Of a stretch of DNA of 64,000 nucleotides, positions 12,818 to 57,211 are shown piece by piece. A program made the position numbers and the translations under genes. The notes beneath the pieces are model-generated. The model saw only the letters and a program-made list of their open reading frames with translations. It searched no databases and had not been told where the DNA came from. Position 1 is the stretch's first letter; every line of letters starts with the position of its first letter. This stretch comes from Agapetus fuscipes (lineage: Eukaryota; Arthropoda; Insecta; Trichoptera; Glossosomatidae), in contig OX637337.1 of assembly GCA_951799405.1 (NCBI GenBank), positions 20,086,347-20,150,346 on the forward strand. The letters are read 5' to 3'.

Positions 12818-13440
12818 CATCCATCTAATCTAATCTAATCTAATCTAAGCTGCAAAGATATATATCATTTAAGATTTATATTAAATGTATTCCCACAAGC
12901 AGATATGTGTAATTTCCCGCTAACACATGCCGCATGTGGACCTACAATATAAAAACCCAATCTCAAATGAACATAAGCCTTGCAACTCTTGCCGTCCTTC
13001 CCTGAAACAGGGGTGATATTGGCAAAGTGAACCTTTTTTTTACAGTATGGGTGGTCAGCCGCATAACAACCTATAAGTCAAGGAACATAAATGACAAATT
13101 ACATTTTTTAAATCAATAAATAACAATATATACATGGACATAAAAAACTAAATCATAAAACCAATTTTACTTTAACAAACCCCAGCCGCCAACATCACAG
13201 ATCAACCGCCATTTCTTTCTATCCTTACATACTTCTTTCATTTCCTCCAGAGTCATAACCTTCTTCATACAAGCTCTTCTTTTATTATGACTCTGGATAT
13301 TCCATTCATTCGCAATTTCGGATATTTGGTCCATCCATACCTTTCTCGGTCTTCCTCTACCACGACATCCATCTATTCTACCAACATATACTTTCTTCGA
13401 TCCATACTTTAAAAAATGGAGCACTTTATCCAATTCCAAT
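12818..13440 (-). mobile_element. 5'-truncated LINE: polymerase C-terminus plus 3' UTR
   Basis: On the minus strand, 13439-13167 encodes VYVGRIDGCRGRGRPRKVWM..MKEVCKDRKKWRLICD, then a stop. A 3' UTR follows to the (ATTAG)n end at 12818, on the + strand TCTAATCTAATCTAA. It shows that the window-wide 250-bp repeat is the 3' end of this LINE. I favour an RTE-like clade, but this is not established. Confidence 0.75.
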
Positions 13441-20404: not shown

Positions 20405-21085
20405 TTCATAGACGTCTAGAAATAATGGATGATGAACGACTGTTAAAAATAATGTACAAAAGTGAATGTGGAAACGTAAGACCGAGGAATAACGTAAAGA
20501 TCAAATAAGCAGGATATTCAATGACTTTAAACTGCAGAGAGAGAAAAAGAAAAGAGCAAGCATGAAGAGAGTGATGAATGCCGAGAAGATAAAAGAAGTG
20601 TGCAAGGACAAATCAAAGTAGAGATCCATCTGCGGAGGTATAGGCCGCACCAAGTGTAGTAGTGGCTGGATACAGGTACAATTACATAGGTGCATGTTTT
20701 AAACACATTTAAAACGATTATTTTACACATTTAATACAAGTTTTATACTTATTTATACAAGTAATGTACATAGGTGCATTTTTAAAAAGTATGCAAAGTT
20801 CTTTTTTATATTTAAATGTAATTTATTATTCATATTCCTTGACTTATAGGTTGGTATGAGGCTGACCACCCATACTGTAAAAATGGTTCACTTTGCCAAT
20901 GTCACCCCTGTTTCAGGGAAGGTCGGCAAAAGTTGTGGGGCTTATGTTCATTTGAGGTTTGGATTTTATTTGTAAGTACACATTCAGCATTTGTAAGCGC
21001 GAACTACACTTGTTGGTTTGTAGGCATACATCTGAGAGCTTTAAATGAATATATCCTTGCAACTTAGATTATAGATTATAGATGT
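20405..21085 (+). mobile_element. Degenerate LINE 3' end with 3' UTR
   Basis: The segment 20415-20640 recalls MDDERLLKIMYK.. and MKRVMNAEKIKEVCKDKSK, ending near ICGGIG as in the copy at 29039. The standard 3' UTR (GTATGAGGCTGACCACCC..) runs from about 20850 to 21085. Several stops and indels are present. Confidence 0.6.
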
Positions 21086-23600: not shown

Positions 23601-23944
23601 CGCAGGTTAGTCCCCCGTTTGGTCTGCTGCAGTCGCAATATATACGCTACTAAGCTGCATACATAGTGCAAATACTTATCGCATTGTCCCCGAACAGGTC
23701 ACATGTGACGTGTGGATCCTATTTATTTACCCAGGTAATTGAGTTGGCCTTAAGCAAGCAACTTAACTTGAAATGGCGGTTTTCCATCTCCCGATGGGTC
23801 TGGTTTCACATTTTTTCTGACGGCTGAACCATCTGTTAGCATCCTAGGGGAGAGAAATCAAATCATTTCCCTAGTTTTATTAGACTCTATGAAATAACCA
23901 TTGGGAACAAAATTTCTATACTAATAGGACAATCGATTAGACAT

Positions 23945-24745
23945 GGGCAGCCACATCTAGGCGCGACCATCTATTGGTCAATGGGGTAGCACTCTCTATA
24001 GGAGGTAAGCTGATCCAGCCTTCTGATTCGATGAGACTTCTAGGAATCTTACTGGATCGGAACCTGACATTAGAAAGGCAAATATATGCCACAATAGCTT
24101 CCTCCTTTTTTTCACTGCGCCAAATAAAGGCGATTAGAAAGTGTCTTCCGTCAGATGCGGTTAAGACCCTGGTGAGTGCGTTTGTGATGTCTCGGATTGA
24201 TTATTGCTCAACGCTTAATAGTGGTCAGCCAAAGAAGCATTTCAACCGCTTTCAATCTGTGTTAAATTCAGCAGCAAGGCTCATATTCGGGAAAACCAAA
24301 TTCGCTCACATCACTCCGCTGTTAAAAAAACTACACTGGCTTCGTTTCCCGGAGAGGGTGGTCTACCGTGTTTGTCTGATGGTATATAAAGCCATCAATG
24401 GCTTGGCTCCACCTTATCTGACTGACATGATTTCGCCTGTTGAGATGGGTGTGAGGAGGCAGACACTCAGATCTGCAGGCGATGGTGCAATCAGTTTGGT
24501 TCAGCCGCACCGTCAGATCCGTACAAATTTTGGAGACCGTGCTTTCTGTGTTGCGGGTCCGGTGGAGTGGAACAGACTGCCACCCGGAATCTATGGGTAT
24601 ATTTCGCGGAGCTCTCAAGACGCACCTTTTCAAAAAGTCTTATCCGTGATCGGAGAGGGCCCTTGAGGTGTGACACACACAAAAACGGCGCTCTCTTATT
24701 ATGTGTAATTTAAAATAAATAAGCCTGATATATATATATATAGCA
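23945..24745 (+). mobile_element. CR1/L2-like LINE 3' fragment, copy 1
   Basis: The open frame 23974-24666 encodes VNGVALSIGGKLIQPSDSMR, then FVMSRIDYCSTL, LHWLRFPERVVYRVCLMVYK and GLAPPYLTDM. This is the region C-terminal of the polymerase palm in CR1-like LINEs. A short deletion near 24589 relative to copy 2 shifts the end, so the final KTHLF motif is out of frame. The 3' tail GAGGTGTGACACACACAAAAACGGCGCTC is followed by a TATA-rich end. The 5' border coincides with that of copy 2. Confidence 0.8.
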
Positions 24746-43300: not shown

Positions 43301-46300
43301 AAATTATATTTTGTAGTATCAATTAAATTGCTGTTAATTTCCATTAAGTATGCTTTGAATACAAAAATGATTATTAAATGTTGTCATGTGTATTTGTTAG
43401 TAATGTTATATTGTACTGCACATGTTTTTTATGAAGATTTCTAATCTTTTTTTGTGTTTCCGCAGCTCGGGTATTGAAAATAATCCGACGGTATTTTACC
43501 GATTAATGCCTGGTTCGACGGCCCAAACAAATAAGTTTCACACATTCTATTTGCAACAAAGGGCGGATAATGGGTTCACATGGGCCGATATAAAAGTAAA
43601 TCACCCGCTGGATTATGAGAGCATCAAAGAATACAATCTGACGGTCCGAGTAGAGGTAAGCTGACGATTCATATCAATTTTAAGGAATCCATAATCTAAA
43701 TTGCAAAAATATATTAACATATCATGTGATGCATGCCCACAAGCAGGCACATGTAAGTTCGCGCTTACACATGCTGCATGTGTACCTACATACAAATTGA
43801 ACTAAACCTCACATGAACATAAACTTTGCAACTCCTGCCGCCTTTCCTTGAAACCGGATTGCCATGGGCAAAAGTGAACCAAGTTTATACAGCATGGGGA
43901 GTCAGCCTAATACCAACCCATCAGTCGAAGAATAATCAAAATATATGTAAATTTTAATGAACTTCTAGTGAAGAATGCGTATTTCTTGGGTTTTGTTATA
44001 TGAGTCCTATAAAATCAAAGACGGCAATCAAGAATTATTTCCAAAAATGAGATACTTGCATAAAAATTAAGAGAAAATGATTCCATATTTTTATCTCAAT
44101 ATTGAAAAAAAACCTAGGTTGCCATTTTTGATTCTATATGACTCATATCTAACATCTTTAGGAGGTTTTCCTGTTTTTGCGATTAACTAGAACAAACAGC
44201 CATCTTAACTAAAATACATAGCACCTACATAAAAATATTTCTACTCTTTTTTCTACAAAAACTTTACAATGCAAGGATCCCAATTGGCATCTTGTAACAA
44301 TTGTAAAAACAAAATTAAAAACCAATCATTTAACTTACCTCAATTGGTTAAGCATCTGCTTTCTGAATATGAGACTTGTGTTCGATGATTTCTTGTTTCT
44401 TGAGCGGTTGACAAAAGGCTGTCTTCCTTATCTGTGAAAATAAAAAAGTCCCATAAGTGAACGCTGATCCTTCCAGAATACAGCTATTGTTGCATTACAG
44501 CTGTTGCACTCTAAATATGTTTTTTTTTAAGTAATAGGTACCTACTTTGCTTTAGGAACGAAGCAATAATGAGTTAGCCAGTATTTATTATGTTCTTGTT
44601 TTTATTTCATTTTGCCTATTAAAATCCTTGAAAAACTAAATATTTGACAGTAAACAAAGAGTTGTCAAATTACTTAAACCATATTGAAATTGGGTATTTC
44701 AGAAAGAGAATAATGTTTTTTTAGAGACAAAAAACTTATTCTTGAATAAAAAAAACACTACTTACACCGAATTTATTAACTATGTACCCCCTCTTCAGCT
44801 TAAGTCAGCGTAAGGCTAGCCCCCTTAGAGCCCGTTCCCACTTGTCAGGTGTCGGGTCCGTATATTGATCGGAGGTTCCAGTGGCAGAACATTATGTATA
44901 GAGCATAGAGCTATGGAGCTATTCAGACTTGTCGGAACCCGATATTGTCCGAAATGCTATGCCACTGGAACCTCCGATTAATATACAGATCCGACACCCG
45001 ACAAGTGGGCTCTAAACTGTAAAAATAAATGGTTTCCACTCGACACATGTTCGGGGTGAACGCAGAAAAAAGTTTCACTACATGTGCAGCTTAGTTGTAT
45101 TTTTTTATGTACCTACATCTATTTTGGACTAGTGAAAAGTGTAGGAGTTAGCTCTTAAATTGATTCACACATAAAACTTCTTCTTCTTCTCGTGCCACTT
45201 CTATCGAAGATCGGCGATCATCATGCCTATTTCGACTTTGGATGCTGCTGCTCGAAACAGGGACTTGATGCTTCTGCCGAACCACTGTTGCAGGTTTTTC
45301 AGCCATGTCCTTCGGCGTCCCCTCAATCTTACCCTGTATGATAAGAAGAAGGAGACGGTATTTCTCATTTCTCAAAATGTGACTGAAGTCCATCAGTTTT
45401 CTCTGCTTACTGGTGGGCAGAAGCTCCTTTGTAGTGCGCATTCGTTGGAGGACTTCTTCATTGGTGACTCGATCACCCCAAGAGATCCGTAGCATTTTTC
45501 GGTAGAGACACATAAAACAGCGCTCACTAAATAAACCATCCTATTATATTATAATTCCAGAACAACGGAGCTCAACAGTTGGCTTCGGAGACAACTGTTT
45601 ACATCATGCTGGAAGACGTGAATGATGAGATTCCCCTGTTCACCGAGCGGGAGCAGGAGACTGTGCTGGAGGGGGAGCCCATCGGGACCAAGGTCACCCA
45701 GGTCAACGCCATCGACAAGGACGGCACATTCCCTAACAATCAAGTAAGGAAAATATCATCATCTAATCTAATCTAAGTCGCAAAGATATGTAACATCGAG
45801 GATTCACATTATATACATTTTCACAAGCGACAAAACACATATAAGTTTGCACTTGTACATGCCGCATGTGAACCTACAACATAAAAACTCAAATCTCAAA
45901 TGGACATACACTCTGCAATTCTTGCCGACCTTCCCTGAAACAGGGGCGACATTGGCAAAGTGAACCATTTGCAATGGCATGGGTGGTAAGCCACATACCA
46001 ACCTATAAGTCAAGGAACATACACAACAAATTACATTTCTTTAAGTATGGCTTCATGGATTGAACCTGCAAGAAAAATCAAATCCATGAGACCAAAAATT
46101 CTGCAAGAGCTTACTCAACCTCTGTCAGAATTATATCCCAAGCCATTTTCTCACGGCATTTGTACCACCAGTATAAAAAAAACTAGTGACCCAATATGTT
46201 GTAGGTATGGAGTAAAAAATGTATGGAAGTTTGCATTTCCATTTACTCTCACCGGAGGCGCTGTTGAATCTTTGTATGAAGATTCAATAGCACCATTAAA

Positions 46301-48718: not shown

Positions 48719-49740
48719 ATCTAATCTAATCTAATCTAATCTAAGCTGCAAGGATATATATACTGGGCAGCCACATCTAGGCGCGACCATCTATTGGTCA
48801 ATGGGGTAGCACTCTCTATAGGAGGTAAGCTGATACAGCCTTCCGATTCGGTGAGACTTCTAGGAATCTTACTGGATTGGAACCTGACATTGGAAAGGCA
48901 AATAGATGCCACAATAGCTTCCTCCTTTTTTTCACTGCGCCAAATAAAGGCGATTAGAAAGTGTCTTCCGTCAGATGCGGTTAAGACCCTGGTGAGTGCG
49001 TTTGTGATGTCTCGGATTGATTATTGCTCAACGCTTTATAGTGGTCAGCCAAAGAAGCATTTCAACCGCTTTCAATCTGTGTTAAATTCAGCAGCAAGGC
49101 ATTCAGCATTCGGGATATCCAAATTCGCTCACATCACTCCGCTGTTAAAAAAACTACACTGGCTTCGTTTCCCGGAGAGGGTGGTCTACCGTGTTTGTCT
49201 GATGGTATATAAGCCAAGCCATGAATATAGGCCAACCAATATATGAGCCAAGCCATCAATGGCTTGGCTCCACCTTATCTGACTGACATGATTTCGCCTG
49301 TTGAGATGGGTGTGAGGAGGCAGACACTCAGATCTTGTGGTCCGGTGGAGTGGAACAGACTGCCACCCGGAGTGAAGAACTCCAAATCTATGGGTATATT
49401 TCGCGGAGCTCTCAAGACGCACCTTTTCAAAAAGTCTTATCCGTGATCGGAGAGGGCCCTTGAAGTGTGACACACACAAAAACGGCACTCTCTTATTATG
49501 TGTAATTAAAAATAAATAAGCCTGATATATATATACCATTTAAGATTTACATCAAATGCATTCCCACAAGCGGACATGTATAATTTCGCGCTAACACATG
49601 CCGCACGTGGACCTACATTATAAGAACCCATCTCAAATGAACATAAGCCCTGCAACTCTTGCCGTCCTTCCCTGATACAGGGGTGACATTGGCAACGTGA
49701 ACCATTTTTTCACATTATGGGTGGTCAGCTAAATGAGCTA
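48719..49740 (-). repeat. LINE 3'-UTR repeat split by the CR1-like copy
   Basis: The (ATTAG)n end and the first 40 bp lie at 48719-48763. The remainder is at 49530-49740, after the inserted CR1-like element. Confidence 0.85.
48764..49536 (+). mobile_element. CR1/L2-like LINE 3' fragment, copy 2, nested
   Basis: It is about 95% identical by eye to the copy at 23945. It starts at the same base (TGGGCAGCCACATCTAGG) and is inserted into a LINE 3' UTR repeat at GATATATATAC. A local duplication near 49215-49245 (AAGCCAAGCCAT..GAGCCAAGCC) breaks the frame, and about 80 bp corresponding to 24476-24556 is missing. It keeps the segment GTGAAGAACTCC lost from copy 1 and reads to KTHLFKKSYP-stop. Confidence 0.8.
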
Positions 49741-50826
49741 AGAATGCAATCCTGAGAATTAGGAATGCACCAACGCACACATTCTACAAAAATGCAAATT
49801 CAGTCAATCGGTGACCCAACTGACAACAGGTGAGTTGATTTGTCAAAATAATAATCAAAAAAGTGACAGCCATTTCTAGAACTATGTTGCAATGTTCCAG
49901 TATGTAGGTACTTGCTTGTTTACTATGTTTGCGCCTTGCGATAATAGATAGGTACTTGTGCAAATCATCCCGTTCCATGTCGTTTGGGACAAATCACATT
50001 TATAGCCACTCACTTGGAACAAATCACATTTATATAAAGTCGTCATGGGACTGGCGCTCTTAGCAACTAACAAAATATTTGCATTTCTTAAGTGACACAC
50101 AATATTGTCTATGACATATTTTTTGTTTGACTTACCTACTGATGGACATACCTTGATCCCAAGTGAAAATTTGCACCTCAACATCAATTAATACTTTAAC
50201 TCTCCATTTTTTTTCCTTCATCACAGTAATTAATTCAGATAATGGATGGATGACCGGGTTTTGAAGAAAAAAAAAAACAAAAACAGGATCATGTCAACTG
50301 CAAAAGAAAAATCACAATTAATAATGGACTATTGTTTTACTTACAAATGTCATTTTAACAACAAAAAAGGGACAATATAACTTCACAATAAATTATTCAA
50401 AAATGAAAAACATTTTGACAGCTTTATCAGGTTTGTTCAGAACACACATTGATTTACGCGTCGAATTAAAAGCGGAAAATGGAATTATTATTAAAGTAAA
50501 CATCGTGTTCACCTACGTACGTGAAAAAAATTGACAAATCATTTTACAACACGGCCACTTATCGATTTTAATCGAATCGACCGGCGTTTTTATAAAGTTC
50601 GCCCGCCATATTTGAAATTTAATTTTGACGTTTCGATGGCAGCATTAGGGTAATTGCAATGGTGAGCAATATGGTTGAAAACGATATTTTTGTGTAGATT
50701 ATAAGTCAAGGATCTCAACTATATTTTTTTTAAGTGGTAAAATTGGGCTTTTCATTTTTAATTTTGTAAAATAAAATGCCGACAAATCGAGTCCAATTCA
50801 AACGCGACGCTATTGGCTGGAGCTCG

Positions 50827-50844
50827 TGTGACGTCATTGGATCC
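50827..50844 (+). promoter_or_regulatory. CRE-like subterminal motif, left end of transposon
   Basis: TGTGACGTCATTGGATCC contains the palindrome TGACGTCA. It lies 179 bp from the left end and about 150 bp before the transposase ATG. A reverse-complement partner with 15 of 18 matches is at 57021-57038. A promoter or transposase-binding role is inferred from position and symmetry. Confidence 0.5.
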
Positions 50845-50976
50845 AAGTGGCGTGAGTGACGTGTGCGACGTGTGTTTGTAGTATTAGAAAGCCGGCTGTC
50901 AGTGTGAAAATACGTGCTATTATCAAGCTTCCGAGATCCGACAAACATAATATAAACTCACAACAAACCTTGAAAA

Positions 50977-53164
50977 ATGTCTTCGAAGTATCATAAATAT
51001 TGTGTAGTTCCGATGTGTACAAATACGTCACGTGCAACACCGGATAAAAAGTTTTTGCGGATGCCCCGCGATCCAGCTATCCACAAAAAATGGTGTCTTG
51101 TGATGAAGCGAGACGAACTTCTGTCTTCCAAATCTACCCGCTTCATTTGCGAAGACCATTTTAATGTAAGTTATAGTATTTTGTTGTTATTTAATTGCAT
51201 ACCTATGTATAAAATATGTTATTTCTACATGCCTTCGTAAATAAATCACGTGGCTCAAGAAATGGCATGTGAAAACGCTGTCAAACGTGTCAAAATTAAA
51301 ATCGATTTGTTTTTAACAAATTGATTAGAAACTCATAGTTTTTTTTGTCAGTAATGATCAAAAACATCCTCAAATATTGTTTGATTCCGTAATTTATAAA
51401 AAAACAAGTGTTAACATAGCAAAGTTTTTGTACTTGTTTCTTTAGGAAGGCAGCAATGGACTGGAATGTAAATATAATATTTTCTCATCGGCCAAAGGTC
51501 ACAGGTCTATGGGACTGGACCCCTTAGCAACCTATAATAAAATATAAGCTTGCCTTTGCCCTGACAACCCGGCTGTGTGACATCACAACTTTTTTATCCT
51601 AGAAGTTTGTGTGCATACTTAATAATAATATATTGTCATGTACTAATGTGTCTAACCTACCTTTTTACTTTTTGTTGTAGTAGTTGTGTGAACTACATGC
51701 TCTCATATTATGTTATTTATATTTTTACAGCTCCAGGACGACTTGGAAAACTTTATGATGGGCAGATTGATGGGAAGCAATATGCGCCTGAAGAAAGGAG
51801 TTTTGCCGCACAAATTTGAGTGCCAAAAAGCTAAAAAGACTGTGGATAGGAAAACCGGCGAGATTAGAAAAAGAAAAATGCTAGTGATGGAACTTTTAAG
51901 AGAAGCAAGTCTGAACGCTACAAACTCTGAAGCATCCACATCAGTTGATGTGGATGCTTCCGCATCCGTTGATGTGGATGCATTCACATCAACTGATGTG
52001 GATGCTGTGGAGCAGTCAACGCATCTGACTTCTGCTCCATTGGATAAAGCAGTGCAGGTGAATATGGTACCCACCTACAGGAGCAAAGCAACCAACACCT
52101 TGAATGTGAGACCCCCGACCACTCACAGTAGCTGCTCACCGATCAAGTTGAAACCTGTGGAATCTCCTCTGGAAAAATTGAATGTGGAAGCTGTCTATTC
52201 ATCTTCCAGTTCAGACCCTGAAGATAGTGATTCTGATCTTTTTGTGGACTATGGTAGTGGCTCGGATTTTGAAGACAACAATATGGAAATGGACGCGCTT
52301 AACGTTGAGATGAAAAGAGGTTATATTTTGCTTGTGCAACGCCAACCTCAACTGTATTTAGGCATTCCAAAAGAAATGTACCATGTATTGGCTATTCTGC
52401 AAGATACAGTTTGTGCACCTATTATAGATATAATGATTTGCCTAAAGAAAATTAGGTTGAATTTTTCATATAAAGTAATAGGTGCACATTTTGGAATGTC
52501 AGATTCCTCTATATGTCGCATTTTTAAGAAAACGATTCCCATTTTATCAGGGGTACTCAAAGAGTTGATTATATGGCCATCTGCAAAACTCATAAGGTTG
52601 GAATTGCCCATTGCATTTCGAGCTCGATATAGGAACGTCCGTTCCATTATTGATTGTCTTGAAATTCAAATTGAGAAACCAGGCAACTCGCTGCACCAAT
52701 CATTAACGTGGTCTGAATACAAGGCCTGTAATACGGTAAAATATCTAATTTCTTGCACTCCAGATGGTCTCATTAATTTCTTATCATGTGGGTATGGAGG
52801 CCGAGCAACCGACTCTACTATTGCTCAGGACTGTGGCTATTTCGACAACATCGCCACAGGAACATGGGTGATGGCAGATCGGGGGTTTAAGAATATTTCC
52901 CATGTTTTAGAGGAAAAGGGTGCTCACCTTGTTCGCCCTCCAAGCGTGCTGCAGAAAAGTACCCTTAGCCAAAACGAAGTTAAGGAAGCAAAGCGAATTG
53001 CCGCTTTATGTATTCACGTAGAGCGTGTGATAAGCAGAGTGAGAGAATTTCATATGCTCACTATGCATTCAACTATCGACCACAACCTCGTGAATCGCTT
53101 GGATGAAATTATTGTGATTGCTTGTGGTCTGATCAACTTACAAAAATCATTGATCAAAGTTTAG
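50977..53164 (+). CDS. THAP-domain DDE transposase (exons 50977-51165 and 51731-53164)
   Basis: The product binds transposon ends and catalyses cut-and-paste transposition in the nucleus. The spliced protein is 540 aa. Exon 1 (63 codons) is a THAP zinc finger with C9, C14, C58 and H61, plus W39. The donor AAT|GTAAGT joins the acceptor TTTTTACAG in phase 0 to LQDDLENF, completing the EDHF..LMG..RLK..VPHKF region typical of THAP transposases. A low-complexity acidic VDVDA repeat (about residues 135-160) and a Ser/Asp-rich stretch follow. The catalytic core is a DDE_Tnp_4-like nuclease with candidate triad D371 (IIDCLE), D446 (MADRGF) and E494 (HVERVISRVR). The frame is fully open to TAG at 53162-53164. 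The start ATG follows an A-rich AAAA context and is the first in frame with the THAP motif. The convergent neighbour is the YqaJ gene. Confidence 0.9.
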
Positions 53165-53224
53165 AAGGGTTAGCCACCCTTAGACATTACTTTTAAAATT
53201 CAATTTTTATTTTCAGTACTTATA

Positions 53225-53705
53225 TTTAACCTTTATGCTTTTGAGCTTATGACTGATATTACTTTTTAAATCTCAAGTGTTTTTATTTACCTTGGTCGCT
53301 TTTATCTATTTTACACCATTCAACTCTTCATTTCACTTGTATGACTGAGATTATTTTTTAAATCTCATGTGTTTTTATTTAACTTGGTGGCTTTTATCAA
53401 ATTTTTACTATTCAACTCTTCATTTCACTTGTATGACTGAGATTATTTTTGAAATCTCATGTGTTTTTATTTAACTTGGTGGCTTTTATCTATTTTTTAC
53501 CATTCAAATCTTCATTTCACTTGTATGACTGAGATTATTTTTGAAATCTCATGTTTTTATTTAACTTGGTGGCTTTTATCTATTTTTTGCCATTCAACTC
53601 TTCATTTCACTTGTATGACTGAGATTATTTTTAAATCTTAATGTGTTTTAATTTACCTTGATAGCTTTTATCTAATTTTTACTATTCAACTCTTCATTTC
53701 ACATG
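53225..53705. repeat. About 92-bp tandem repeat, five copies
   Basis: The marker GACTGA starts at 53251, 53343, 53435, 53527 and 53617, giving spacings of 92, 92, 92 and 90 bp. Each unit contains the same series: ATTATTTTT, AATCTCATGTG, TTTTTATTTA, CTTGGTGGCTTTTATC, ATTCAACTCTTCATTTCAC. It lies between the two convergent transposon genes. Confidence 0.9.
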
Positions 53706-53825
53706 TTGCTTACTAAGTTACATTTACTATTCTGGTCAATTTTTCTGAATCTCACTTTACATCTGTTGCAACATGTACATAATGAGTATTAATGTTTGTA
53801 TTAATAATGGAAAGCCTTTTTTATT

Positions 53826-53831
53826 AATAAA
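53826..53831 (+). terminator. Polyadenylation hexamer after transposase gene
   Basis: AATAAA lies about 660 bp past the transposase stop, directly after the 92-bp tandem repeat array. It is the first good hexamer in this direction. Confidence 0.4.
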
Positions 53832-53954
53832 GTACACTTCAATCAACAACTTCTTTATTTTTATTAGAAAAACCAACAGAAAGATGATACCTACATAATA
53901 AGAACATATGAAAAACTCCAATACCAGGTATTGTTAAGTAGTGCATTTTTACAT

Positions 53955-54165
53955 TATAATCTAAATGGTAAAGATACACATGACTTTATGATTCATATTA
54001 AATACATTTCTATAAGCAGGCATATTGTGTTAGTTAACGTTTACATAATATGCTGCATGTTCATTAACAAAATAAAGACCCAAATTTAAACTGAATGCAC
54101 AAGCCCTTAAACTTGACGCTCTTCCCTGGAACAGAGGTAATATTGGCAAGTGAACCTTTTGTTAA
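53955..54165 (-). repeat. Old LINE 3'-UTR copy inside the ISL2EU transposon
   Basis: ATAATCTAAATGGTAAAGATAC to TATTGGCAAGTGAACC. Strongly diverged from the window consensus. Confidence 0.65.
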
Positions 54166-54324
54166 CAAAGTAGTTATCACATATATCAAATATAAAAAAG
54201 TAGTTAAGAAACAGCAGTTATAAAATACATAAATAACTATACTTTAAAATTGTTAGACTTTGGTAAATATGCATTAAAACACCTTATAGCTATACTTTTC
54301 AAAGTACCCACAGTGTAATACATA

Positions 54325-54578
54325 AAGTCTAATGTAATCTAGGTTGAAAATATACATAAACATTTAAAGTTCCTACTAAATACACACCCACAAACAGACA
54401 AGTGTAAGTTCTCGCTTACAAATGCTGCATGTGTACTTACAATTCAAAAACCATATAAATGAATACTCAAATGAACAAAAGCCCAGCAACTTTTGCCGTC
54501 CTTTTATTGGCAAAGTGAACCATTTTTTACAGCATGGGTGTTCAGCGTCATACCAACCTATAAGTCAAGGGATACAAA
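54325..54578 (-). repeat. LINE 3'-UTR copy inside the ISL2EU transposon
   Basis: AATGTAATCTAGGTTGAAAAT to CCAACCTATAAGTCAAGG. Diverged, with a deletion before TATTGGCAAAGTGAACC. Confidence 0.75.
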
Positions 54579-54687
54579 CAATAAATAATATTCTCAAGTA
54601 TATAATTATTCAGAATGTTGAGAGAATAAGAACAAGAATAGCAGATCAACATTACAGATAAAAATTAATTCATATAAAATAAAACAT

Positions 54688-56861
54688 TTATTGAAATAAT
54701 CTAAAAAATAATGTTTTAGTCCAAAATTCACATGCTTTTTCCATTAAATCTAAACAATAATTTTCATCATACTCCACAGTGCATTCAACGGTCTCACAAC
54801 TCTTTTCAAAATCCGGTTTGGCAACACAGAATATTCCTCTTTTCTTTTTTGTAAAATGCATTTGCATTTGGATTTGTGCAAAGAACTTCGGAGTGGGTTT
54901 GTCTTTGACAAAATATTTCTCCATCCATTTTTCGGTGCTTGGACATTTTATCTCAAGTACATATTCTTGAGATACTCCATCAGGAGAAGCTCCAAAAAAT
55001 GGATAATGCTTGGATAGCAATAATCCACATTTTTTCAGATCGGGATATTGCTTTTTGATTTTTTTGAAAACCAACTCTTCCAGTTTTCGGCCACGTGTCA
55101 CAGCTGCCGTCTCAAAAATTTTTCCTCCCAACAGCTGCTCCACAAGAGAGCCATCAGGAGTGTGACAGCGTGACGCTTCATGGATCTTGGATGCTGTGAT
55201 TCTCCCATACCTCAACTCGTACCAAAGAGTGCAATCAGCCTGCTCCAGAGTTTCCTTGGCTGCCTCGTTGCACGCCTTAACACTCATTCTATTTTCACAG
55301 TATGTTTGAAATTGCTGAGGGGTCGTGCCTTTTCCATCGTCTATAAATTCCTCCATTAATCTATGGATGCTAAGGGATTCTATAGGATTGCCCTCCTTAA
55401 AATACTTCATAAGGAGGACATCCTTGACGTCAGCTTCCTTCGTTGCTTTAACGACGGATGCCAAAAACTTTCCGTTACTCGAAGGCCCAGCTGTGAAAGT
55501 TTTAAGTTCTCCTAAATCCCTACATTTTATGAATTTCACAGCTGAGCCTATCTCTGCCATCTTTGACCGCTTCCAGTAACATTTCACTTCTGTCTTTGCT
55601 GGCTCTTCGCTGCGACGATGCACCCATGACAGAAAGGCTACTGCATGCTTGCAACCTCCTGTAAGAGAGTAAAAATAAAAAAATGTTTCATTTTGATTAA
55701 TACAGATGCAAATAATGTAGACCTCTGCTTTAATACTTTATATATTGATGAATTAACAAAAAATATTCACTTATTTTGTTGACATAAATTTTAAGTAAAA
55801 ATTGGAATATTTTTTCACAAAATATTGTTTTCTTTAGAAAAATAATGAAATTAAAAAGAAAAAATATTTGCAGTCAGCAAGGCCATAATGTTGGCCAATG
55901 GATTGATATGAGTCTGACCGCCCACACTATAAAATATGTTTCACTTTGCCAATGTCGCCCGTTTCAGGGAAGGTCGGCACCAGTAGCAGGATGTATGTTC
56001 GTTTGAAGATTGGATTTTAATTTGTAAGTAGGTACACATACAGAATTCGTAAGCGCGAACTTACACGTGTCCGTTTGTGGGCATGAATCTTAAATGTTAA
56101 CATATCTTTGCATCTTAGATTACAGATAGCAATTATTTGGTGAGCCGAGCCTGCTAATTAGATCTCTTACATTTTATTGCTTTTACAAAGGAATCATGAC
56201 ACCTCGTGAATCTAATATTCATTACTGACCTTGAGATGCTGGACAATCTTCACAGACACATGATTCAACAGTGCCTTGTTCCTCATCGGTGATCAAGGTT
56301 ACCGCGTATGCTTTTGTACGGACTTTGTGTTCTGGTGTTATACGGGCCTTAACAGTGCAAATGGCTCCATCGCGTTTCACTTGCACATAGCCAATGGCAT
56401 TGTCTCCGTAACTTTCTCTCGAAGATCTAAAAACAAACAAACGGAATAAGGGTTAGGATATATTGCAAGTGCACAACCCTTGACTGGTGTAAAGTAAGGT
56501 TATGTGATTAAAAACAACTTTTAATGATGTAATAAAGGAAGTAAGCTTTATAAACAATTAATTTAGCCTTTATATTAAGATTTAGAAGCTATGACATGGC
56601 AGTATTGCAATTTAAATAAGTAAGGTTACAGAATTTGTAAAGGAAAGATGTTTGCATGAAAACGTATAATATCTGGAGAATTTATGAATCTAAATGAACT
56701 TTGACACATAAACAGAACTATTTTTCTTACCTTGAAGCTTTTACTCCACGTAATTCTGAACTTATGAAGTCCATGTTCTTGGAGAAATACACATACATCA
56801 TCATAGCATCGACCTCCGGTAAATTGTCAGATTGAGCCTTTTCAAAGCCCTTTTCAGTCAT
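54688..56861 (-). CDS. SWIM zinc finger + YqaJ-type exonuclease protein (three exons)
   Basis: Exons on the minus strand are 56861-56731, 56426-56230 and 55658-54688, joined in phases 2 and 1 at GT/AG sites to give 432 aa. The N-terminus is MTEKGFEKAQSDNLPE. A SWIM finger C-x-C...C-x-H is formed by C100, C102, C112 and H114, and its last two ligands come from exon 3 (GGCKHAVAF). The C-terminal half is a lambda-exonuclease/YqaJ domain, with RYGRITAS at about 260, RGRKLEE (E303/E304), GASPDG (D336) and VLEIKCPS (E345, K347). These are the D...ExK metal-binding residues of the fold. The family processes DNA 5' ends. In ISL2EU transposons it is an accessory protein of unproven role. The stop TAA overlaps an AATAAA hexamer at 54686-54691. 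The gene is convergent with the transposase gene, with 1.5 kb between stops. Confidence 0.88.
55890..56132 (+). repeat. LINE 3'-UTR copy in intron 2 of the YqaJ gene
   Basis: GGATTGATATGAGTCTGACCG to TTTGCATCTTAGATTACAG. Opposite in orientation to the host gene. Confidence 0.75.
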
Positions 56862-57020
56862 CTTTGATGATTACACCAATTCAATTATACTTTATACACG
56901 GCACAACTAACTTTAAAGTGCAAATAATAGTTGAAATTGATGAAAATAGATATACTCGTCAAATGTAAACAAATCCGCCATACAAAAATACACACGACTG
57001 AATGACAGCTGAGCCGAATG

Positions 57021-57038
57021 AGATCCATCGACGTCACA
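57021..57038 (-). promoter_or_regulatory. CRE-like subterminal motif, right end of transposon
   Basis: Read on the minus strand it is TGTGACGTCGATGGATCT, 170 bp from the right end and about 160 bp upstream of the YqaJ-protein ATG. It mirrors the motif at 50827. Confidence 0.5.
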
Positions 57039-57211
57039 TCCGCCCAAATGCAAAAAATGGGCCGTTTCACAGGAAATGGAAAAATGACAAATTTAAAAGC
57101 GCCCTAATTCAAAAAATACGCATTATTAAAAAAAAAAAAAAACGGGAGACTATTTTAATAACTTTAATCTATCAATTTACGAAAGAAAAAAAAAGTGTGA
57201 AATTACCCTAT

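What the first reader, a model, noticed from the sequence alone, without database searches (positions are those of the whole stretch)
50648..57208. Two-gene transposon pairing a THAP-DDE transposase with a SWIM-YqaJ exonuclease, both open
Both spliced frames are uninterrupted (540 and 432 aa) with the DDE triad and the YqaJ D..ExK residues present. A cut-and-paste transposase travelling with a lambda-exonuclease-like nuclease suggests coupling of excision to end resection or recombinational repair. THAP+YqaJ pairing is known for ISL2EU elements. The mechanism is, to my knowledge, unresolved. This copy appears competent and sits in a CadN intron.
Basis: partly seen in the sequence, partly recalled or inferred. 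Interest (0 to 1): 0.8.

Follow-up and report, generated by a model that had tools for sequence, protein, structure and literature searches.

The report
Young two-gene ISL2EU transposon burst
This is a very recently multiplied jumping gene of a known kind in an animal (probably insect) genome, and its sister copies carry natural variants that could show what its unusual DNA-chewing helper enzyme does.

Summary
Window 50647-57209 is a complete two-gene DNA transposon: a 540-aa THAP-HTH-DDE transposase and a convergent 432-aa nuclease with a SWIM-like zinc motif and a YqaJ (lambda-exonuclease) domain. It fits the known ISL2EU group. At least 39 further 5' ends lie in the same 618-Mb genome, and 8 of 22 fully read copies show no substitution outside a 92-bp array, so the family moved very recently. 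Empty sites read AATT, not AATATT, which fits the published ISL2EU target A|AT|T with an AT duplication. "Appears competent" needs a caveat: this copy has Cys at transposase residue 490, four residues before the catalytic Glu, where all 120 listed homologues have Arg. Cys490 has spread to 14 of 37 readable copies; Arg copies persist and moved recently too. A pair of copies sharing a broken nuclease shows that such a copy also moved. The nuclease active site is nearly invariant in the 120 listed homologues, so nuclease activity is probably selected. Its role, perhaps resecting the donor break so that homologous repair restores the element, is inferred, not shown. New member of a known kind.

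The parts
50647..57209 (.). ISL2EU-type transposon (AGGGTAATT...AATTACCCT), 6563 bp
   Evidence: Same ends in 35 copies read at both ends; empty sites AATT
50645..50646 (+). 5' flank dinucleotide TT where AT is expected (this copy reads ATTA|GGG; AATA in the other 34 of 35)
57210..57211 (+). 3' copy of the AT duplication (CCCT|AT|T)
50647..50655 (+). 5' terminal inverted repeat AGGGTAATT
57201..57209 (-). 3' terminal inverted repeat AGGGTAATT
50977..51165 (+). transposase exon 1 (THAP zinc ligands C9, C14, C58, H61)
51731..53164 (+). transposase exon 2 (HTH_Tnp_4, DDE_Tnp_4; D371, D446, E494)
53009..53011 (+). codon of residue 490: Cys here, Arg in 120 of 120 listed homologues and in 23 of 37 readable genomic copies
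51929..52006 (+). 24-bp coding repeat in the transposase linker, variable in number between copies
53186..53706 (+). 92-bp tandem array between the convergent genes; by length about 4 to 13 units in the 22 fully read copies
56731..56861 (-). nuclease exon 1
56230..56426 (-). nuclease exon 2 (first Cys pair of the SWIM-like motif)
54688..55658 (-). nuclease exon 3 (CKH of the SWIM-like motif; YqaJ domain E303/D336/E345/K347)
54328..54592 (.). nested copy of a dispersed ~230-280 bp repeat frequent in the window
55903..56127 (.). second nested copy of the same repeat, in a nuclease intron

Best explanation
A complete, very recently mobile member of the ISL2EU group of Harbinger-like (PHIS) cut-and-paste transposons. 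Shown: the transposase has THAP, HTH and DDE domains; the ends are AGGGTAATT; insertion is at AATT; sister copies are nearly identical; the partner belongs to the lambda-exonuclease fold with a conserved active site. Inferred: the THAP/HTH part binds the ends, and the DDE core excises the element and inserts it at A|AT|T. The partner, as an active 5'-3' exonuclease guided by its zinc-binding N-terminal part, resects the break left at the donor site, so that homologous repair from a sister or homologue restores the element and copy number rises. This particular copy is mobile DNA with a sound nuclease gene, but its transposase may be impaired (Cys490) and it may have moved through Arg490 copies.
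For: Domains. 22 full-length loci; 8 of 22 substitution-free among themselves outside the array; 10 substitutions in 77,920 site-copies in the 13-copy Cys clade. Empty sites AATT. Nuclease: D336 117 of 119, E345 118 of 119, K347 119 of 119, S266 120 of 120 ungapped rows among the 120 listed of 385 homologues. The model of a homologue matches lambda exonuclease and LHK-Exo, best E 2.1e-10. Linked inheritance: 14 pairs, Mantel r 0.48, P 0.0002. Transposase frame open in 22 of 22 copies, nuclease frame in 19 of 22; splice sites kept in 22 of 22.
Against: No assay and no expression data. No excision footprint or donor-site repair product was observed. L011/L012 share the same nuclease lesions yet sit at two sites, so the gene is not needed in cis; that is expected if it acts in trans, but it gives no positive support. 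Array-length changes and one truncated copy are equally ordinary repeat instability. Arg to Cys at residue 490 lowers confidence in this copy's own transposase.
Confidence: 0.5

Rival explanations
1. The YqaJ protein serves mainly as a DNA-binding or nuclear-import helper that brings transposase to the ends, as the Myb-like protein does in Harbinger; nuclease activity is incidental.
For: The Harbinger second protein is described as doing this (passage of PMC9179366). The conserved zinc-binding-like motif C102/C105/C112/H114 could bind DNA or transposase.
Against: Active-site residues are near-invariant in the 120 listed homologues, which a binding-only role would not require.
Confidence: 0.2
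2. The nuclease acts on the transposon itself (end or intermediate trimming, removal of unproductive excised DNA), not on the donor break.
For: Kolobok lineages, another superfamily, also carry nucleases; degradation of intermediates is proposed for the DnaQ type (passage of PMC9587614).
Against: No ragged ends seen: the terminal 12 bp are identical in 22 of 22 copies, and GGGTAATT is exact at the 5' end of 17 of 17 further ones.
Confidence: 0.2
3. The Cys490 lineage is catalytically defective and spread only in trans through Arg490 copies.
For: Arg in 120 of 120 listed homologues. Arg copies are abundant (23 of 37), and L027, L028 and L029 show no substitution to one another outside the array, so helpers were active in the same genome.
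Against: The Cys clade is young and large (14 copies; of the 13 fully read, all have identical transposases and 12 identical nucleases, the 13th being frameshifted). In the bacterial IS1634 family only 5 of 32 members have the equivalent Arg (passage of PMC2266710), so the residue is not universally required. On the looser set of 59 columns conserved in 95% or more, the window departs in 1, the same as the median row.
Confidence: 0.55
4. Harbinger or another TA-duplicating element, as implied by the reader's TA boundaries.
For: TA adjoins GGG/CCC at both ends of 22 of 22 copies.
Against: Empty sites read AATT, not AATATT, in four comparisons; no Myb domain at E<=1.
Confidence: 0.02

Closest known systems
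ISL2EU group of the PHIS superfamily (Han et al. 2015, PMC4482050)
   Same: THAP+HTH+DDE transposase, YqaJ second ORF, AATT target with AT duplication, short G-rich inverted repeats, animal host
   Different: An A lies between the AT duplication and GGG (published inverted repeats usually start GG); 6.56 kb against ~4.84 kb average, partly because of nested repeats and a 92-bp array
Spy (sister clade of ISL2EU in PMC11304231, passage)
   Same: Related transposase, AT-rich target
   Different: Spy is described as lacking a duplication, inserting at AAATTT and mostly having one ORF; this has two genes and AATT
PIF/Harbinger
   Same: DDE_Tnp_4-type transposase plus a second protein
   Different: Harbinger has a TWA duplication and a Myb-like second protein
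KolobokE
   Same: Cut-and-paste transposon with a lambda-exonuclease-like nuclease
   Different: There the nuclease is described as encoded downstream of the transposase domain (passage of PMC9587614); here it is a separate gene on the opposite strand
Phage lambda exonuclease / LHK-Exo
   Same: Fold, Pfam YqaJ, D..ExK residues
   Different: N-terminal SWIM-like part; no annealing-protein domain among the Pfam hits of the two proteins

Membership tests
ISL2EU | DDE transposase with HTH and THAP domains | tested here: met
ISL2EU | second ORF with YqaJ exonuclease domain | tested here: met
ISL2EU | target A|AT|T, AT duplication | tested here: met
   Flanks AATA in 34 of 35 (5') and TATT in 33 of 35 (3') copies; empty sites AATT. 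The window's own 5' flank reads ATTA. Sequence alone cannot separate an AT duplication (AGGG..CCCT) from TAGGG..CCCTA with none
ISL2EU | inverted repeats usually starting GG | tested here: inconclusive
   AGGG if the duplication is AT; 'usually' in the source
ISL2EU | restricted to animals | tested here: met
   Host carries a Neural-cadherin exon; every source that names an organism among the 120+120 listed homologues is an arthropod; no relative found in viral contigs or, for the transposase, in genome contigs
ISL2EU | DDE clade placement in a PHIS tree | not tested
   No labelled ISL2EU/Spy/Harbinger reference sequences at hand
PIF/Harbinger | TWA duplication, Myb/SANT second protein | tested here: not met
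Spy | AAATTT target, no duplication, mostly a single ORF | tested here: not met
   Two genes; target AATT, outer A/T not fixed; absence of a duplication cannot be judged
lambda-exonuclease-like nuclease | PD-(D/E)XK fold and active-site residues | tested here: met
   activity not testable here

The most novel reading that the evidence does not exclude
ISL2EU elements may turn cut-and-paste into net copying by carrying their own lambda-type 5'-3' exonuclease that commits the donor break to homologous repair. In this genome a transposase with an altered, otherwise invariant active-site-helix arginine (Arg490 to Cys) drove or rode the youngest expansion.
Probability: 0.3. Interest if true: 0.7.

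Novelty: new member of a known kind. Interest (0 to 1): 0.42.

Why it matters
The role of the YqaJ nuclease in ISL2EU is unexplained in the papers seen, and one of them states that no proof of ISL2EU activity was known to its authors in 2022 (PMC9179366, passage); one gain and one loss were counted in Daphnia lines (PMC8594854, passage). A family with many near-identical intact copies, a natural nuclease-broken copy that still moved, and a natural Arg/Cys split next to the catalytic Glu gives ready material to test which protein does what.

Tried and rejected
TA duplication: rejected by empty sites.

No-duplication reading from off-consensus flanks: the window (ATTA) and L014 (TACA) first looked like insertions without duplication, with P about 1e-4 for two later substitutions in 120 flank bases. 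The L014 empty site (six of six fetched copies read AATT) showed that L014 simply lost 3 bp, so the argument fell. The window's mismatch alone is weak. The window's empty site was not found: its right flank begins a different high-copy repeat.

Subterminal motif: TGTGACGTC occurs inverted near both ends (180 and 171 bp in), but other 9-mers are shared too. Not pursued.

Relatives in viral and prokaryotic collections: none confirmed. Distant matches of the nuclease to phage exonucleases: 7 records, 28-32% identity over at most 52% of the query. Foldseek of the transposase model gave nothing at E<=0.001; retroviral integrases and a THAP domain appear only weakly.

Census by the 3' end: not completed, so nonautonomous derivatives sharing only 3' ends are not counted.

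Full report
The finding is real. On the + strand, exons 50977-51165 and 51731-53164 splice by GT-AG to a 540-aa protein with THAP, HTH_Tnp_4 and DDE_Tnp_4 domains. On the - strand, exons 56861-56731, 56426-56230 and 55658-54688 splice to a 432-aa protein with YqaJ and Viral_alk_exo matches. The genes converge on a 92-bp tandem array at 53186-53706. The inverted repeats are only AGGGTAATT; the rest of the ends aligns poorly. On their own they are not beyond chance (25 of 100 shuffles).

Homologues: 385 proteins match the nuclease and 475 the transposase at E<=1e-3. The best 120 of each were listed, and every source in those lists that names an organism is an arthropod; many entries have no named source. 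In the 120 listed nuclease homologues D336 is kept in 117 of 119 ungapped rows, E345 in 118 of 119, K347 in 119 of 119, S266 in 120 of 120 and E303 in 116 of 117. The zinc-type motif C102/C105/C112/H114 is kept in 116 of 116, 114 of 115, 119 of 119 and 118 of 119. A model of homologue P0001, from a 56-row alignment chosen from those 120 (mean pLDDT 86, pTM 0.59), finds lambda exonuclease and LHK-Exo first. By sequence PDB 3syy (LHK-Exo) matches at 8e-8. Genes of the two families on records of the same listed contig length were paired by eye, so others may have been missed. Thirteen such pairs plus the window gave correlated distances (Mantel r 0.48, P 0.0002). Three of these contigs are chromosome-sized, so those pairs are less sure, and one ambiguous chromosome-sized match was left out.

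Genome copies: the host assembly has 618 Mb in 148 contigs, and the window is C5:20086347-20150346. A first search returned 22 loci with both ends, all fetched. They are 99.4-100% identical to the window copy. A search with the 5' 333 bp returned 40 ends, all that were scored of 484 candidates: the 22, a second 5' end at L013, and 17 more. Counts are lower bounds by the tool's own statement. Thirty-five copies were read at both ends: 5' flank AATA in 34 (window ATTA), 3' flank TATT in 33 (L014 TACA, L025 TATA). Copies truncated or interrupted, or with no 3' end found in the pieces fetched (L033/L065, L034, L038, L045, and the outer L013), were left out of that count.

Empty sites: (i) inside L013 a copy sits within another copy, at a place that reads GCGAATTGCC in the window element and GCGAATA|GGG at the junction; the right-hand remainder is gone, so only the left junction is compared. 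(ii) L065, a similar locus, holds the L016 site empty..TTAATAATTG.., against ..TTAATAATA|GGG..CCC|TATTG.. in L016; both sides are compared. (iii) L016's left flank holds the L065 site empty, CTTAATTAGG, against CTTAATA|GGG; left side only. (iv) L014 lies in a high-copy repeat with 40 scored matches across the join; six of six fetched read GACCAATTACAG. All read AATT. A TA duplication would need AATATT and is refuted. The published ISL2EU target A|AT|T (PMC4482050, parts 1 and 2 of 4 of the text read) fits, with element AGGG..CCCT. The same letters also fit an element TAGGG..CCCTA without duplication; flanks cannot separate these. L014's odd 3' flank is a 3-bp loss. The window's 5' flank, ATTA, stays unexplained.

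Age: outside the array, 8 of 22 copies (window, L010, L015, L016, L018, L020, L022, L023) show 0 substitutions to one another; L022 and L023 have one small deletion each. In the 13-copy Cys clade 10 substitutions were counted in 77,920 site-copies. Array length differs even among the 8 (about 6 to 10 units), and from about 4 to 13 units over the 22.

The caveat on competence: residue 490 is Cys here and Arg in 120 of 120 listed homologues. Of 23 columns invariant but for at most one row, 114 of 121 sequences depart in none and the window departs in this one. On the looser set of 59 columns conserved in 95% or more, the window departs in one, like the median row. The window also has His36, where 54 of 60 ungapped homologues have Arg and 5 Lys; His36 is in 22 of 22 copies. 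In the model of homologue P0121 the corresponding Arg524 and Glu528 lie in one helix. The spacing Arg-(3)-Glu-(6)-Arg/Lys resembles the Y-R-E-K signature of IS4 transposases. That comparison is mine, and in the IS1634 family only 5 of 32 have the Arg (passages of PMC2266710). Over the genome 14 of 37 readable copies have Cys and 23 Arg; two further loci (L033, L034) could not be read there. Outside the array L019 differs from the main Cys sequence at two places only, both amino-acid changes (Arg490 in the transposase; Glu237 for Lys in the nuclease, a variable position). In the unrooted copy tree the Cys copies fall together next to L019; with Arg general in homologues, Cys is the derived state. 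Arg copies also moved recently: L027, L028 and L029 show no substitutions to one another outside the array, though L029 differs by indels. So the Cys clade may be active or may have been moved in trans; I favour trans, weakly.

Nuclease-broken copies: L011 and L012 share the same deletions in the nuclease gene, differ by one substitution outside the array and have different flanks, so a nuclease-defective copy moved. L014 has an independent 1-bp loss. The transposase frame is open in 22 of 22 copies and the nuclease frame in 19 of 22; splice sites of both genes are kept in 22 of 22. The nuclease is therefore not needed in cis while other copies supply it.

Host gene: part of the exon at 37818-38696 matches Neural-cadherin over 57 aa, although the whole exon scores best against CELSR1. 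A cadherin cytoplasmic-tail exon lies on the same strand at C5:20604350. An intronic position in CadN is likely.

Literature: searches on ISL2EU with YqaJ, exonuclease, Lepidoptera, domesticated and excision, plus YqaJ with THAP and transposon, and YqaJ with SWIM and insect, found no experimental test of the nuclease in the listings, abstracts and passages seen. PMC9179366 (passages) says no proof of ISL2EU activity was known to its authors. PMC8594854 (passages) lists one gain and one loss of PIF-ISL2EU in Daphnia lines. KolobokE carries a lambda-exonuclease-like nuclease (PMC9587614, passages). Passages of PMC11304231, PMC12730594, PMC4026531 and PMC2705183 were also seen; none tests the nuclease. 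The pairing is thus known, and the present case is a fresh, very young member.

Mechanism: lambda exonuclease digests the 5' strand and leaves 3' overhangs (recalled). A transposon-encoded version at the donor break would steer repair to homologous copying and regain the element. This is inference. Conservation supports an active enzyme but not the substrate.

Noticed in passing
window 23941-24666 and 48740-49246: Two closely similar open frames that look, from memory, like reverse-transcriptase C-terminal fragments of a LINE-like element, both on +.
   Followed up: no
window, many places e.g. 2049-2295, 12834-13105, 20815-21071, 45762-46037, 54328-54592, 55903-56127: A dispersed ~230-280 bp repeat, 66-86% identical to the two copies nested in the transposon, at more than 15 places in the window; it also lies in the flanks of several insertions (L010, L017, L025, L026, L029).
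   Followed up: partly
L065:373-1987 (C22:3264100-3268100): Truncated transposon copy: 5' 1624 bp kept, the rest plus about 40 bp of right flank lost relative to L016; a possible abortive repair product.
   Followed up: partly
L013 (C20:13490517-13500097): Copy inside a copy whose 3' remainder is gone, consistent with collapse between direct repeats.
   Followed up: partly
window 57213 onward: Right flank starts a different high-copy repeat; 38 further scored matches at 94-100% in the genome.
   Followed up: no
window 51929-52006: 24-bp repeat in the transposase coding region that varies between copies (proteins of 538, 540 and 548 aa).
   Followed up: partly
L014 flanks: Another high-copy, 99%-identical repeat (40 scored places) that hosts the L014 insertion; identity not determined.
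   Followed up: no
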